Origin: Stackebrandtia nassauensis DSM 44728
GTDB lineage: Bacteria > Actinomycetota > Actinomycetes > Mycobacteriales > Micromonosporaceae
Assembly: GCF_000024545.1 (NCBI RefSeq)
Contig: NC_013947.1
Coordinates: 496,001 to 560,000, forward strand
Length of the DNA stretch: 64,000 nt
Direction: 5' to 3'
In this document: in pieces, positions 56,930-64,000 of the stretch
How the letters are laid out: each line of letters opens with the position of its first letter
Position numbering within the stretch: position 1 is the stretch's first letter
Made by a program: the position numbers and the translations under genes
Notes under the pieces: model-generated
Seen by the model: the letters and a program-made list of their open reading frames with translations, nothing else
Told to the model about the DNA's origin: nothing
Database searches by the model: none

Positions 56930-57898
56930 ATGAACGACCCGACCCAGCAGTTCGAGCCGCATCGGCGTGAACTCACCGGTTACTGCTATCGCATGCTCGG
57001 TTCGGCCTTCGAAGCCGAGGACGCCGTGCAGGAGACCATGGTCCGGGCCTGGAAGAACTTCGACCGCTTCGAGGGCCGCTCCTCGGTGCGTTCCTGGCTG
57101 TACCGCATCGCGGGCAACGTCTGCTTCGACATGCTGCGCAGCCCGCAGCGTCGGGCCCGGCCCTCGGACCTGACCGGGCCGAGCACCGCCGACGACATGC
57201 CGGGACCGCCGCTGTCGGAGTCGACCTGGATCGGCCCGATCCCCGACAGCCTGGTCGCCGCCGACCCGGCCGACCGCGCCGTCACCAAGGACTCGGTGAA
57301 GCTGGCCTTCATCGCGGCGCTGCAGAAACTGCCCGCCAAACAGCGCGCCGTCCTGGTGCTGCGCGAGGTGCTGGACTGGTCGGCCGCCGAGACCGCCGAA
57401 CTGCTGGAACTGAGCGTCGCCTCGGTCAACAGCGCGCTGCAACGGGCCCGCGCCACCGTCGCCGACCTGGACGAGGGCGTCACCGACGACCGCGACCCGC
57501 TCGACAAGGACCAGCAGGAACTGCTCGACAACTACGTGTCGGCCTTCGAGGCCTACGACCTGGACGCGCTGACGCATCTGCTGCACGAGGACGCGACCCT
57601 GTCGATGCCGCCGCTGGACCTGTGGCTGCGCGGTGCCGACCAGATCCGGGCCTGGTTCCTCGGCACCGGCTGCGGCTGCCGCGGTTCCAAACTGGTGCCC
57701 GTGGCCGCCAACGGTGTCCCCACGTTCGCCCAGTACCGGCCCAGCGAGGACCCCGAGGTGTGGAAGCCGTGGGCGCTCATCCTGCTGGACATCCGGGACG
57801 GCCAGATCGTGGCGCAGAACAACTTCCTGGACGTGGAGCGGCTGTTCCCGCTGTTCGGCCTGGCCATGGAGTACCGGCTGCCGAAGGCCACCGCCTGA
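56930..57898 (+). CDS. ECF sigma factor with SnoaL-like C-terminal domain (SigG/SigJ class)
   Basis: AAGGACG precedes ATG 56930. The 322 residues split into sigma region 2 (LTGYCYRMLGSAFEAEDAVQETMVRAW, partly quoted), region 4 (LPAKQRAVLVLREVLDWSAAETAELLELSVASVNSAL, partly quoted) and an NTF2/SnoaL-like domain of about 130 residues (YVSAFEAYDLDALTHLLHEDATLSMPP, partly quoted). Such C-terminal domains replace a separate anti-sigma factor and modulate activity. It is monocistronic, with a strong terminator. Confidence 0.92.
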   Translation: MNDPTQQFEPHRRELTGYCYRMLGSAFEAEDAVQETMVRAWKNFDRFEGRSSVRSWLYRIAGNVCFDMLRSPQRRARPSDLTGPSTADDMPGPPLSESTWIGPIPDSLVAADPADRAVTKDSVKLAFIAALQKLPAKQRAVLVLREVLDWSAAETAELLELSVASVNSALQRARATVADLDEGVTDDRDPLDKDQQELLDNYVSAFEAYDLDALTHLLHEDATLSMPPLDLWLRGADQIRAWFLGTGCGCRGSKLVPVAANGVPTFAQYRPSEDPEVWKPWALILLDIRDGQIVAQNNFLDVERLFPLFGLAMEYRLPKATA

Positions 57899-58959: not shown

Positions 58960-59243
58960 TGCCGATTCATCGGTTCCGGACTGACCAAGTGGCCCGGTGG
59001 CCTTAGAAGCGAAAGTCCCTGCCGTTTCGGACCTAGGGCTCTTATCCGAGAAGCCGGTTCGCGATTGGATCAAGACAGGTGGAACTCACCAGCAGCGGCG
59101 ATGGAAACGTCAGAAAGGACGTGAGGAGTCGCCGAGAGAACCACCAAGTCGGCGAGTACACCGACTTCCCACGGTGTCGCCGACCTGTCCGGGGAGCAGG
59201 ACAGTCACGCGGGGCGGAATGGTTAGGATTCCGCCCCGCTTTT
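58960..59243 (+). ncRNA. Candidate structured RNA ending in an intrinsic terminator
   Basis: No convincing coding frame covers this stretch, but the plus strand is densely self-complementary. Hairpin A is 59096-59101 with 59129-59134, enclosing 59107-59111 with 59118-59122. Hairpin B is 59146-59152 with 59161-59167. Hairpin C is 59185-59190 with 59199-59204. A small stem at 59078-59081/59087-59090 precedes them. All lead into a terminator at 59209-59239 plus TTTT. 59148-59155 can instead pair with 59177-59184, which excludes hairpin B. The 5' border is a guess. I do not recognise an RNA family; a leader attenuator for the lanthipeptide operon or a free small RNA are both possible. Confidence 0.4.
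59209..59243 (+). terminator. Strong intrinsic terminator upstream of the lanthipeptide genes
   Basis: A perfect 12-bp stem (59209-59220 with 59228-59239) and a 7-base loop are followed by TTTT. No plus-strand protein gene lies upstream of it within several hundred bases, so it must end an RNA that starts in the noncoding region. Confidence 0.8.
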
Positions 59244-59472
59244 CAATGTCCACTTTCCACAGGGCACCGACAACCTCACCGCCGCCTCGAAACCGGAGGC
59301 GGCGGTCTTCGTGCGCGTCCACCGAGTATCCATGCGATTACCACACTCCCGGCGCGGAGAAACTCATCGGTAAGCAATGAGCTCCTCACTGTCGGATAGA
59401 TACGAACGGAGGTGTTTGACGGGTAACCGCCTCACCACAATGGGGAATCACGCACAACCGAAGGCAGGCGGT
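59244..59472. other. Leader region of the lanthipeptide synthetase gene
   Basis: This stretch has another hairpin (59281-59288 with 59296-59303, 7-base loop) and then 170 bases of lower GC content directly before the synthetase start, where its promoter should lie. An in-frame extension back to 59377 does not look like synthetase sequence. I could not identify a RamR-type binding site. Confidence 0.45.
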
Positions 59473-62034
59473 ATGGACGAGCAGTACGAAGCGTTCTGCA
59501 TGGCGGATTCAACGTTCTACGACGCCATGTACTCGGCCGAGACCGCTGGTGTCTCGTTCCCGGTCGCGGAACGGGAACTGTCGCCGGAATGGCATCGGTC
59601 CGAACAGGACGACTGGCTCGTCTTCCGTCGTCCCGACCGCGAGATTCCCGGTCAGGGATGGAAGATCCACGCTTCGGCCAGTATGGAGTCGGCGCAGCGG
59701 GTGCTCGAAGAGGTATGGGACTACTGTGTACCGCGCGGCATCGCGTTCAAGTTCCTGCGCTCGCCCAACGCGCTGCTGGTCCGGGTCTCCAAGTACGCGC
59801 CCCGCGGTTACAGCGGCAAACTCGTCACGATCTACCCGGCCGACATCGGCCAGTGCGAGACGATCCTCAACGAACTGGGCGCCCGGTTGGAAGGCGTCGA
59901 CAACCCGTACGTCCTCAGCGATCTGCGCTGGGGCACCGGACCGCTGCACGTCCGTTATGGAGCCTTCGCCAACCAGTACACCGTCGACGAGAACGGTCAG
60001 ACGGTCGAGGCGATCCTCGACGGGGACGGCAAACTGGTCGCCGACGACCGGGGACCGGTGTTCCGCATCCCCGAGTGGGAGACGCTGCCGGAGTTCCTTC
60101 AGCCCCACCTGGAGGCGCGCAACGCCGTCACGGTCGCCGAACTGCCCTACGCCATCGACGGGGTGCTGCACTTCTCCAACGGCGGCGGCATCTACCGCGC
60201 CCGCGACACCCGGGACGGGAAACGCGTGGTGCTCAAGGAGGGCCGTCCGCACGCGGGCCTCGACGGCAAGGGCCGCGACGCCGTGCAGCGGGTGGAGCAC
60301 GAGTACAACATCCTCAAGCAACTGTCCGGAATCGAGGGTGTTCCGGAGGTATACGACCTGTTCTGGTTGGGAGAACACCGATTCCTGGCGATGGAGTACG
60401 TCGAGGGTGAGGTGCTCAGCAAGGCGATCGTGCTGAAGTACCCGCTCATCGACCCCGGCGCCACCGAAGCCGAGTTCGCGACCTTCACCGACTGGGCGCT
60501 GGAGGTGCACAACCAGGTCAGCAAGACCATCGCGGAGATCCACGCGCGGGACGTCGTCTACGGCGACCTGCACCTGTTCAACATCATCGTGGACGAATCC
60601 GACCGGATCCGGCTGCTGGACTTCGAGGTCGCCGACGCGGCCGACTCCGCCGAGCGCCCGGCGCTGGGCAACCAGGGCTTCACCGCCCCCCGCGACATCG
60701 TCGGCCCGGCGGCCGACCGGTACTCGCTGGCCTGCCTGCAACTGGCGCTGTTCATGCCGATGACCAACCTGCTCGGCCTGCACCGGCTCAAGGCCCGGCA
60801 CTTCGTCGAGATCATCACCGCGCACTTCCCGGTGCCCGACGGGTACTTCCGCGAGGCCCTCGACCAGATCGCCCCGGCCACCATCACCGACGCCCCGATC
60901 CGGATCGAACCCGAGACGGAGCAGTGGCCGCGACTGCGCGACGACCTCGCCAAGGCCATTGTGGCCAGTGCGACCCCACAGCGCGAGGACCGGCTGTTCC
61001 CCGGCGACGTGCAGCAGTTCGCCGTCGGCGGCCTGGGCCTGGGCTACGGCGCCGCCGGTGTCCTGTATGCCCTGTCGGTCACCGGTGCCGGGCGGCACGA
61101 ACGGTTCGAGGACTGGCTGATCGACAGGTCGCTGCGACCCGTCCAGGGCACCCGGCTGGGACTGTACGACGGCCTCAACGGTGCCGCGTTCACCCTGGAT
61201 CACCTGGGGCACCGGCAGGCCGCGCTCGACGTCGTCGACATCTTCCTGGCCGAGAAGTGGGAGTCCCTCAACACCGACCTGGCCAGCGGCCTGGCCGGGG
61301 CGGGACTGAACCTGCTGCACCTGGCCGGACCCGACGAACCGGAACTGGTGGAACGCGGCCTGCGCTGCGCCGAACTGGTCGCCGCCGACATCGGCGAGCT
61401 GGCCGAGGCCACCGACTCCTCCGGCGGCGGCGAACCGTGGGCCGGGCTGATGCGCGGCGACTCCGGCCGGGCGCTGCTGATGCTGCGCGCCTACGCCGAG
61501 ACCGGCGACCCCGGTTTCCTGGACCGCGCCGAGACGGCGCTGCGACGCGACCTGAAACGCTGTGTCACCAGCAAGACCGGCGCGCTGGAGGTCAACGAAC
61601 GCTGGCGCTCGATGCCGTACCTGGAGGCCGGAAGCGTCGGGATCGGGCTGGTGCTGCGCCAGTACCTGCGGGTCCGGCACGACGAGGAACTGGCCCAGGC
61701 GGCCGAGGACATCGACCTCGCCGCACAGTCCCCCATGTACATCCTGCCCGGCCTGTACGACGGCCGCGCCGGGATCCTGTTGTACCTCGCCGAAACCCTC
61801 GCCGACCCGTTGTCGGAGAGTTCCGTGCGCCGTCAGGTGCGCGCATTGTCCTGGCACGCCCTTCCCTACGCGGACGGCGTCGCTTTCCCCGGAAACGGTT
61901 TGCTGCGGCTCTCGATGGACCTGGCAACCGGCGGCGCCGGAGTCCTGCTGGCTCTTGGCGCCGTCCTGCACGACCAACCTGTCCACGCTCCGCTGCTGAC
62001 CCTCAAAGACACCCGCGGCGCCCGCCGCGAGTGA
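59473..62034 (+). CDS. Class III lanthipeptide synthetase (LanKC, RamC/AmfT-type)
   Basis: ATG 59473 gives 853 residues in the three-domain order of class III enzymes: an N-terminal lyase domain (about 1-210), a Ser/Thr-kinase-like domain (about 220-480; GDLHLFN with Asp365, DFE with Asp383) and a C-terminal LanC-like cyclase. The cyclase keeps the barrel pattern (GLYDGLNGAAFTL, GLAGAGLNLLHLA, GLYDGRAGILLYL) but lacks the Cys/Cys-His zinc ligands of class I, II and IV enzymes. It phosphorylates Ser in the precursor, eliminates phosphate and closes (methyl)lanthionine or labionin rings. The precursor gene follows after 35 bases. Confidence 0.95.
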   Translation: MDEQYEAFCMADSTFYDAMYSAETAGVSFPVAERELSPEWHRSEQDDWLVFRRPDREIPGQGWKIHASASMESAQRVLEEVWDYCVPRGIAFKFLRSPNALLVRVSKYAPRGYSGKLVTIYPADIGQCETILNELGARLEGVDNPYVLSDLRWGTGPLHVRYGAFANQYTVDENGQTVEAILDGDGKLVADDRGPVFRIPEWETLPEFLQPHLEARNAVTVAELPYAIDGVLHFSNGGGIYRARDTRDGKRVVLKEGRPHAGLDGKGRDAVQRVEHEYNILKQLSGIEGVPEVYDLFWLGEHRFLAMEYVEGEVLSKAIVLKYPLIDPGATEAEFATFTDWALEVHNQVSKTIAEIHARDVVYGDLHLFNIIVDESDRIRLLDFEVADAADSAERPALGNQGFTAPRDIVGPAADRYSLACLQLALFMPMTNLLGLHRLKARHFVEIITAHFPVPDGYFREALDQIAPATITDAPIRIEPETEQWPRLRDDLAKAIVASATPQREDRLFPGDVQQFAVGGLGLGYGAAGVLYALSVTGAGRHERFEDWLIDRSLRPVQGTRLGLYDGLNGAAFTLDHLGHRQAALDVVDIFLAEKWESLNTDLASGLAGAGLNLLHLAGPDEPELVERGLRCAELVAADIGELAEATDSSGGGEPWAGLMRGDSGRALLMLRAYAETGDPGFLDRAETALRRDLKRCVTSKTGALEVNERWRSMPYLEAGSVGIGLVLRQYLRVRHDEELAQAAEDIDLAAQSPMYILPGLYDGRAGILLYLAETLADPLSESSVRRQVRALSWHALPYADGVAFPGNGLLRLSMDLATGGAGVLLALGAVLHDQPVHAPLLTLKDTRGARRE

Positions 62035-62069
62035 TACACAAGAAAATCCTTTTTGGAAGGACTACTCAC

Positions 62070-62222
62070 ATGGCACTTCTCGACCTGCAGGGCCTCGAGT
62101 CCCCCGCTGACCTGTCCGCCACCCGAGGCGGCAGCAGCGGCAGCGGCCACAGCTGCCCGAGCAACCTGAGCGCGACCCTGTGCGGCGGCACCAGCGGCCT
62201 CAGCGTCCTCATCTGCCACTAG
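62070..62222 (+). CDS. Class III lanthipeptide precursor with three ring motifs
   Basis: GGAAGG precedes ATG 62070. The peptide has 50 residues. The leader starts MALLDLQGLE, with the LLDLQ recognition box of SapB/AmfS-type leaders, and runs to about the Gly-Gly at 20-21. The core contains three consecutive Ser-x2-Ser-x3-Cys units: Ser22-Ser25-Cys29, Ser31-Ser34-Cys38 and Ser42-Ser45-Cys49, with His50 last. SapB has two such units. Each can become a labionin or lanthionine-plus-dehydroalanine ring. From memory this matches stackepeptin of Stackebrandtia nassauensis, reported as a class III peptide with multiplied motifs. Confidence 0.95.
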   Translation: MALLDLQGLESPADLSATRGGSSGSGHSCPSNLSATLCGGTSGLSVLICH

Positions 62223-62232
62223 GCCCGCCAGT

Positions 62233-62275
62233 CGTGGCCCTCGGTCATACCCTCCCCGGCCGTCCGGGGGCCACG
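62233..62275 (+). terminator. Nested hairpins between precursor and exporter genes
   Basis: An outer stem (62233-62240 with 62268-62275) and a competing inner stem (62254-62259 with 62264-62269) follow the precursor stop. There is no T-run, so it may act as a partial attenuator or mRNA end that keeps precursor levels above exporter levels. Confidence 0.5.
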
Positions 62276-62289
62276 GCTCGCGAGAACTC

Positions 62290-63996
62290 ATGACGTTCAT
62301 TCGCGACGAAGAGCGCCCCCGGAAGCTCGGTGACATAGCCCGGCGTCCGGGGGCGTGGCTTCCCCTGATCGGCGCATCCGCCCTCATAGGAACGGCGAGC
62401 ACCCTGTCGCTACCAACAGTGCTCGGGCATGCCGTCGACTCGATCGTCGCCGGTGCCGACGGCGGCGGGTGGATGTGGTTGGCGATGGGAATCATCGCCG
62501 CGGGCGTACTGAGCGACTTGACCGATTCTTATGCGTCCTCGGCAAGTCTCGCCGGTACCGCGGCCTGGCTGCGCGGCACTGTGGTGCGTCACGTGCTGGC
62601 CCTCGGCGCCCGTCCGCCGCGCCGATTCGACACCGGAGACCTGGTCACGCGCGTCTCGGCCAACAGCGTCGACGCGGCGCGGACCGGTCCCGGTGTCGTC
62701 TCAGGCGTCTCGGCGGTCGTCCCGGCGGCGGGAAGCCTGGTCCTTCTGGCCATGATGGACATATGGCTGGCGGTGGCCTTTCTGGGGGGCGTCGCGCTGG
62801 TCGCGATCGTGTTGCGGGTCTTCACTTCCCGGACCGCGTCCGTGACCGCCGACTACCAACGGGTACAAGGACGTCTCGCGGCGCGCCTGACTGAGGCAAC
62901 GGCGGGAGCGCGTACGATCGCCGCCGCGGGGTCGGCGCGTCGCGAGGCCAACCGGGTGTTGACCGATCTGCCGCAGCTGTCCGAGCATGGACGGCGCACC
63001 TGGCGGGTGCTGGCCTCGGCCAGCGCCCAGGGAGCGGTGGCGGGACCGCTGGTGCTCATCAGCGTGCTGGCCGTCGGCGGCCTGGGCCTGTGGCAGCGGC
63101 GACTGACCCCGGGCGAGCTGTTCGCGGCCGCCCAGTACGCGGTGATCGGCGCGGGCCTGGGCGGACTGACGAGCGTCTTCGCGGCACTGGCCCGCTCGAT
63201 GGCGGGCGGCAAAAGGGTCCTGGAACTGCTGCGGCTGGACCCGGTCGGCCACGGCGGCGACGAGCTGCCCGACGGCGGCGGCGAACTGGAGTTCCGGGGC
63301 GTCAGCGTGTCGGCTCCCGCACCCGAGACCGACGACGAGGCCGACGATGCCGACACTCCCGCATCCCTTCTGACCGACGTGAACCTGCGACTGCCCGCGG
63401 GCAGCGCGGTCGCCGTCGTCGGCGACGACACCAAGTCGGTGCTGGCCGAACTCGCCGCCCGGCTGCGCGACCCCGACTGTGGTCAGGTGCTTTTGGACGG
63501 TGTGCCGCTTTACCGCCTGTCCCGGCGGCGACTGCGCGAGGCCGTCGGCTACGCGCCCGCCCAACCCGTCCTGGTCGGCGCCACCGTCGCCGAAGCGCTG
63601 GGCCCCAACAGTTCCCAGGACGACATCCGCGACGCCGCCACGGCGACCCACTGCCACGACTTCATCGCGAAACTGCCGTTGGGCTATGAGACACCCCTGG
63701 ACGAGGTCCCGATGTCCGGCGGCGAACGGCAACGCCTCGGCCTGGCTCGCGCCTGGCGGGCCGGTCGGCTGCTCGTCCTCGACGACGCTACCTCCAGTCT
63801 GGACACCGTCACCGAGCTTCGGATCGGACACGCCCTGTTCAACGGCGACAACCGAACCCGACTCATCGTGACCTACCGCGCCTCCACCGCCGCCCGCGCC
63901 GACCTCGTCGTGTGGTTGGAGGCAGGTCGGGTCAAGGCCGTCGGACCCCACGCCGAACTGTGGGCCGTTCCCCGGTACCGGGAGGTATTCGGGTGA
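62290..63996 (+). CDS. ABC exporter half-subunit with degenerate ATP site (RamA/AmfB-like)
   Basis: The protein has 568 residues: six membrane helices (about 20-300) and a fused nucleotide-binding domain. The signature MSGGERQRLG (475-484) is good. Walker A is degenerate (GDDTKS, 378-383), Walker B has Asp instead of the catalytic Glu (LVLDDATSSLD, Asp498-Asp499), and the switch histidine is replaced by Tyr529 (VTYRAS). Such halves work as heterodimers with an intact partner, as RamA with RamB in Streptomyces. It should export the modified lanthipeptide. Confidence 0.9.
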   Translation: MTFIRDEERPRKLGDIARRPGAWLPLIGASALIGTASTLSLPTVLGHAVDSIVAGADGGGWMWLAMGIIAAGVLSDLTDSYASSASLAGTAAWLRGTVVRHVLALGARPPRRFDTGDLVTRVSANSVDAARTGPGVVSGVSAVVPAAGSLVLLAMMDIWLAVAFLGGVALVAIVLRVFTSRTASVTADYQRVQGRLAARLTEATAGARTIAAAGSARREANRVLTDLPQLSEHGRRTWRVLASASAQGAVAGPLVLISVLAVGGLGLWQRRLTPGELFAAAQYAVIGAGLGGLTSVFAALARSMAGGKRVLELLRLDPVGHGGDELPDGGGELEFRGVSVSAPAPETDDEADDADTPASLLTDVNLRLPAGSAVAVVGDDTKSVLAELAARLRDPDCGQVLLDGVPLYRLSRRRLREAVGYAPAQPVLVGATVAEALGPNSSQDDIRDAATATHCHDFIAKLPLGYETPLDEVPMSGGERQRLGLARAWRAGRLLVLDDATSSLDTVTELRIGHALFNGDNRTRLIVTYRASTAARADLVVWLEAGRVKAVGPHAELWAVPRYREVFG

Positions 63997-64000
63997 GACT
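63993..64000 (+). CDS. Start of the second exporter half (cut by window end)
   Basis: GGAGG at 63981-63985 stands 7 bases before a GTG at 63993 that overlaps the TGA of the preceding gene (GTGA). In ram/amf clusters the second ABC half follows directly. Only two codons are visible, so the identity is an inference. Confidence 0.45.

What the first reader, a model, noticed from the sequence alone, without database searches (positions are those of the whole stretch)
59473..64000. Class III lanthipeptide cluster whose precursor has three SapB-type ring motifs
The 50-residue precursor shows three Ser-x2-Ser-x3-Cys units in a row (22-25-29, 31-34-38, 42-45-49) against two in SapB/AmfS, behind a classic LLDLQ leader, with LanKC and an exporter in the same operon. 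The extra N-terminal ring unit is Gly/Ser/His-rich (SSGSGHSC) while the other two carry Leu/Ile/Val like SapB, so the product should have a polar ring plus two hydrophobic rings, an unusual amphiphile. I recall a reported 'supersized' peptide, stackepeptin, that fits, so the peptide itself may be known; its biological role in sporulation or aerial growth is less clear.
Basis: partly seen in the sequence, partly recalled or inferred. Interest (0 to 1): 0.75.

Follow-up and report, generated by a model that had tools for sequence, protein, structure and literature searches.

The report
Known three-ring lanthipeptide: stackepeptin gene cluster
This is almost certainly the gene cluster of stackepeptin, a published three-ring relative of the bacterial surface peptide SapB, so the main finding is ordinary; what is added here is that its polar first ring belongs to a conserved group of peptides found in several actinomycete families.

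Summary
Window 62070-62222 (+) encodes a 50-residue SapB/AmfS-family precursor with three Ser-x2-Ser-x3-Cys units behind LLDLQ, between a class III synthetase LanKC (59473-62034) and an ABC exporter half (62290-63996). Just past the window follow a second ABC half and a convergent LuxR-type regulator: the ram/amf layout. The genome has one LanKC over cut-off and one RamS-family precursor, so this is almost certainly the published stackepeptin cluster; the stackepeptin paper itself was not readable. Added here: three-unit precursors in 25 of 81 genomes with a RamS match (own genome included) and in six further named genomes. Ring 1 reads SSxS[GKN]HSC in 25 of 32 of them. On a LanKC tree this type, with two relatives lacking ring 1, is one well-supported clade. 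The polar ring is conserved, but its chemistry and role are untested here. Verdict: already known peptide, low surprise.

The parts
59473..62034 (+). LanKC, class III lanthionine synthetase (RamC N-terminal domain, kinase, LanC-like), 853 aa from this ATG (the open frame begins at 59377)
   Evidence: NF038151 1048.9 bits over cut-off 575, match from residue 5; PF25816, PF00069, PF05147
62070..62222 (+). Precursor peptide, 50 aa: LLDLQ leader and three SxxSxxxC units
   Evidence: PF19402 51.2 bits; NF033212 47.2 bits; sequence
62133..62156 (+). Codons of ring unit 1, residues 22-29 (polar, SSGSGHSC)
62160..62183 (+). Codons of ring unit 2, residues 31-38 (SNLSATLC)
62193..62216 (+). Codons of ring unit 3, residues 42-49 (SGLSVLIC)
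62223..62289 (+). Intergenic stretch with a strong predicted hairpin between precursor and exporter genes
   Evidence: 62218-62292 folded as RNA: -39.4 kcal/mol, z -3.95, 0 of 200 shuffles as low
62290..63996 (+). ABC exporter half 1 (568 aa)
   Evidence: PF00664 60.1 bits, PF00005 51.1 bits. The second half and the regulator lie just outside the window at G000:C1:560016-561725 (+) and 561722-562402 (-)

Best explanation
This is the stackepeptin biosynthetic cluster of Stackebrandtia nassauensis, a SapB/AmfS-family class III lanthipeptide system with three ring units. Inferred working: LanKC binds the LLDLQ leader, phosphorylates core serines and eliminates them to dehydroalanine, then joins each Cys to its S-x2-S partner, giving lanthionine or labionin at each of three units. 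The two ABC halves export the product, an unclustered host protease trims the leader, and the convergent LuxR-type protein regulates the operon as RamR/AmfR does. The mature peptide most likely acts at the hyphal surface as a SapB-like amphiphile (about 0.6), with the polar ring 1 as its conserved hydrophilic end. Shown here: gene content, motif, conservation and tree. Inferred: all chemistry, export, regulation and function. The confidence given is for the identity of the cluster.
For: One 6,841,557-bp contig, exactly the size published for S. nassauensis (PMC3035245, passages). One LanKC over cut-off and one RamS-family match in the whole genome. PMC6429369 says that S. nassauensis has been studied for its stackepeptins (passage); PMC8123854 says stackepeptins were found by genome mining and characterised by heterologous expression and tandem MS (passage); the title of Jungmann 2016 says 'supersized' and 'motif multiplication' (reference lists). 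Order KC-A-T1-T2 with a convergent regulator, as described for ramCSAB/ramR and amfTSAB/amfR in PMC13380574 (section). Matches to T1 and T2 follow the precursor in 12 of 12 named three-unit loci; the regulator match is downstream and convergent in 10 of 12. Ring 1 pattern and Ser codon use.
Against: The stackepeptin paper is not held and no held paper prints the two core strings searched for, so the published sequence was not compared letter for letter. The strain is recorded as non-sporulating, with aerial mycelium on some media only, so a SapB-like role is unproven. The four same-genus genomes listed have no RamS match. Of 12 named loci, one has the regulator match upstream and one has none in the stretch held.
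Confidence: 0.95

Rival explanations
1. The first unit is not cyclised: it is a Gly/Ser spacer that happens to fit the motif, and the active product is a two-ring SapB analogue.
For: Ring 1 is Gly/Ser-rich in this peptide. Two members of the same LanKC clade lack it, L070 and L077. pN/pS over ring 1 was 0.95, no lower than ring 3 at 0.92 and above ring 2 at 0.60.
Against: SxxSxxSC is kept in 26 of 32 three-unit precursors and His at the same place in 25 of 32. Invariant Ser positions of ring 1 use both AGC and TCN codons, which the pN/pS count partly treats as non-synonymous steps. The stretch between leader and ring 1 varies in letters and length.
Confidence: 0.1
2. Same cluster, but the product is mainly an antimicrobial or signalling peptide and not a surface-active morphogen.
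For: The strain is recorded as non-sporulating. Function was not tested here.
Against: Family and five-gene layout match those of the morphogenetic SapB/AmfS systems.
Confidence: 0.3

Closest known systems
Stackepeptin of S. nassauensis (Jungmann et al. 2016, doi 10.1021/acschembio.5b00651)
   Different: None found; its sequence and ring map were not readable here. The gene names StaA/StaKC are recalled.
SapB (RamS) / AmfS of Streptomyces
   Same: LLDLQ leader, SxxSxxxC units, LanKC, two ABC halves, LuxR-type regulator.
   Different: Three units instead of two; the extra N-terminal unit is polar and holds His.
Durhapeptin (PMC13380574)
   Same: Same family and a five-gene layout with ABC proteins and a response regulator.
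   Different: Two SxxSxxxC units; described as highly hydrophobic.

Membership tests
Class III lanthipeptide system | LanKC synthetase with RamC N-terminal, kinase and LanC-like domains | tested here: met
SapB/AmfS family precursor | Match to NF033212 / PF19402 over the curated cut-off | tested here: met
   47.2 against 25 bits; 51.2 against 24.3 bits
SapB/AmfS family precursor | ram/amf gene content: KC, S, two ABC halves, LuxR-type regulator | tested here: met
   compared with the text of PMC13380574. At E <= 0.001 Pfam showed no membrane domain for the second ABC half and no receiver domain for the regulator
SapB/AmfS | Two ring units and morphogenetic (aerial growth) activity | tested here: inconclusive
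   three units, not two; activity not testable here
Stackepeptin | Encoded in S. nassauensis | tested here: met
Stackepeptin | Precursor identical to the published one | not testable with these tools
   paper not held; two core strings not found in held papers
Labionin/lanthionine peptide | Dehydration and ring formation at all three units | not testable with these tools
   needs mass spectrometry

The most novel reading that the evidence does not exclude
Stackepeptin is one member of a dispersed three-ring lanthipeptide subfamily whose polar, histidine-bearing first ring (SSxS[GKN]HSC) was added early in one LanKC clade, is kept across Stackebrandtia, Glycomyces, Longispora, Pseudonocardiaceae and Actinopolymorphaceae, and was lost at least twice. 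The ring would have a function of its own, such as binding a metal or a surface partner, beyond the two hydrophobic SapB-like rings.
Probability: 0.35. Interest if true: 0.4.

Novelty: already known. Interest (0 to 1): 0.2.

Why it matters
The peptide itself is published. The added value is a natural comparison set: close relatives with and without ring 1 (L083 against L070; L067 against L077) that would let the role of the polar ring be tested directly, and a clear motif by which to find more three-ring members.

Tried and rejected
Considered and set aside: a new lanthipeptide class (the family models pass their cut-offs); chance motif (0 of 200,000 shuffles); a peptide unique to this genome (32 three-unit precursors after removing six duplicate loci). 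The idea that the ring-1 His and the C-terminal His go together was dropped by eye on the table: the K-for-H peptide and the four STGC-type peptides still end in His, and some HSC-type peptides do not (L087, L097, L102). The pN/pS comparison of the rings (0.95, 0.60, 0.92) did not show stronger constraint on ring 1; I set it aside because Ser AGC/TCN switches count in part as non-synonymous. The entropy comparison (mean over the five columns outside S/S/C: 0.61, 0.76, 1.04 bits for rings 1-3) is biased towards ring 1, because its 26 rows were chosen for a SxxSxxSC ring 1. AGC/TCN mixing is also seen at the Ser positions of rings 2 and 3, so it shows protein-level constraint on ring 1 but nothing special to it. 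A sigma-70-type promoter scan upstream found nothing. A single origin of all three-unit precursors is only weakly supported (84, 78). The two two-unit rows inside the clade are read as losses; a later exchange of precursor genes was not excluded.

Papers seen: PMC13380574 (passages and one section); PMC6429369, PMC12328550, PMC10885120, PMC11251773, PMC7296275, PMC8123854, PMC7268733, PMC3035245 (passages only); for PMC12328550 and PMC7296275 the passages were reference-list entries. Jungmann 2016 was seen only as a reference-list entry. Other papers were seen in search listings only.

Full report
What is there. The window is G000:C1:496001-560000 of a genome held as a single 6,841,557-bp contig. 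Window 59473-62034 encodes a class III lanthionine synthetase (NF038151, 1048.9 bits against a cut-off of 575). Window 62070-62222 encodes a 50-residue precursor that passes the RamS (PF19402) and SapB_AmfS_lanti (NF033212) cut-offs. Window 62290-63996 encodes an ABC exporter half.

Beyond the window. Nineteen bases after the first ABC half comes a second one, and a LuxR/GerE-type regulator reads towards it on the other strand. At E <= 0.001 Pfam reported no receiver domain for the regulator and no membrane domain for the second ABC half. This content and order match what is given for ramCSAB/ramR and amfTSAB/amfR (PMC13380574, section).

Identity. The contig length equals the published genome size of Stackebrandtia nassauensis LLR-40K-21 (PMC3035245, passages). 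The genome has one LanKC over the cut-off; the next best, at 628896-631364, scores 287.5 bits, under it (of 14 control genomes in that search one has a match over the cut-off). It has one RamS-family match at E <= 1 (none of 14 control genomes over the cut-off). PMC6429369 says that S. nassauensis has been studied for its stackepeptins (passage), and PMC8123854 that stackepeptins were found by genome mining and characterised by heterologous expression and tandem MS (passage). The stackepeptin paper's title speaks of a supersized peptide with motif multiplication (reference lists); the paper is not held. I conclude that this is the stackepeptin cluster. The published sequence was not compared.

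How it most likely works. Phosphorylation and elimination of serines by LanKC, then addition of each Cys to its S-x2-S unit to give lanthionine or labionin, is established for the class (recalled; ring types stated in passages of PMC11251773 and PMC7268733). None of the five cluster genes matched a protease family. Proteases outside clusters serve other class III peptides, and products occur as mixtures trimmed to different lengths (PMC10885120, passages). This genome has five M1-peptidase matches, which I did not test further. Ring type, export, regulation and function are inferred.

Relatives. In 200 genomes of the family (the tool's grouping, own genome included), 81 have a RamS match at E <= 0.01, and none of 14 control genomes. 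A script given 100 loci found 121 precursor places: 38 with three units, 78 with two, 5 with one, and none in L107. A unit there is [ST]-x2-[ST]-x(2-5)-Cys. Of these, 27 have three strict SxxSxxxC units and five have a ring 1 one residue shorter. By handle, 26 of the 32 lie in 25 of the 81 genomes, own genome included (G019 has two), and six in further named genomes: Actinopolymorpha rutila, Actinophytocola xanthii and gossypii, Amycolatopsis deserti, Kibdelosporangium aridum and Actinosynnema sp.. No other genome of the same genus is among the 81; four are listed without a match, and 99 further genomes without a match are not listed.

Ring 1. It reads SSxS[GKN]HSC in 25 of 32. Of the other seven, four read SASSTGC or SSSSTGC, one SGTSKSC, one has Lys for His, and L103 has a hydrophobic unit instead. 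Among the 26 SxxSxxSC peptides the four invariant serines of ring 1 use both AGC and TCN codons (19 and 7, 18 and 8, 20 and 6, 13 and 13), so the protein letter is kept while the codon changes. The same mixing is seen in rings 2 and 3. pN/pS did not single out ring 1: 0.95, 0.60 and 0.92 for rings 1, 2 and 3.

Tree. LanKC was sought in 70 of the 100 loci (the 30 search loci L014-L043, about 3 kb or less each, were left out) and found in 68. Six duplicates and two partial rows were dropped, leaving 60 rows (quick method). The 31 three-unit rows need three changes of state; they lie with three two-unit rows in a 34-row clade with support 99. Within it, the HSC-type rows, L093 and L113 (27 three-unit rows), with two two-unit rows, form a 29-row clade with support 100. 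In a 54-row tree without six distant rows, holding the 31 together without L070 and L077 is rejected (p-AU 9.7e-103), which fits two losses of ring 1. One origin for all 31 is favoured but weakly supported (84 and 78). L103 has no LanKC in its 8-kb stretch and could not be placed.

Gene order in named relatives. In 12 of 12 named three-unit loci (L109-L120) matches to both ABC halves follow the precursor, best piece only and with the second half partly covered in L110, L116 and L118. The regulator match is downstream and convergent in 10, upstream in L109 and not found in L113. The window's upstream DUF998 gene had no match in these loci.

Print status. All seven held papers with the word stackepeptin were looked at in passages. 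One lists stackepeptin in a subfamily with 2-3 cysteines (PMC11251773). The listings for class III with labionin or Stackebrandtia (20 of 31 shown), for the core strings (none) and for Glycomyces with lanthipeptide showed no title on this wider three-ring group; I did not read those papers for it. Subscription papers, the stackepeptin paper among them, and supplementary tables were not searched, so this is no claim of priority.

Verdict. A correct observation of an already published peptide. Interest 0.2.

Noticed in passing
window 62223-62289: Strong predicted hairpin between the precursor and exporter genes (-39.4 kcal/mol, z -3.95), possibly a partial terminator or transcript stabiliser.
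   Followed up: partly
window 59209-59239: Terminator-like hairpin upstream of LanKC (one found in the region, 1.5 expected in shuffles).
   Followed up: no
L009:2822-5416 (G000:C1:628821-631415): A second RamC/kinase/LanC-like synthetase, under the LanKC cut-off and perhaps class IV, with a small ORF upstream (L009:2490-2726) that holds several Cys and could be its precursor.
   Followed up: partly
G000:C1:3691065, 3830181, 5751749 and 231780: Further LanC-like matches over the Pfam cut-off in the same genome, so other lanthipeptide or LanC-like genes are likely.
   Followed up: no
L095: Two precursors in one cluster: a two-unit SapB-like peptide and one with a polar SSHSHSC first unit.
   Followed up: no
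L103: Three units without the polar first ring and no LanKC in the 8-kb stretch.
   Followed up: no
L042: Two-unit precursor with two extra Cys in the Gly-rich spacer.
   Followed up: no
L070 and L077: Two-unit precursors inside the three-unit LanKC clade, each next to a three-unit relative.
   Followed up: yes
window 56930-57898: ECF-type sigma factor with a SnoaL-like C-terminal domain.
   Followed up: no
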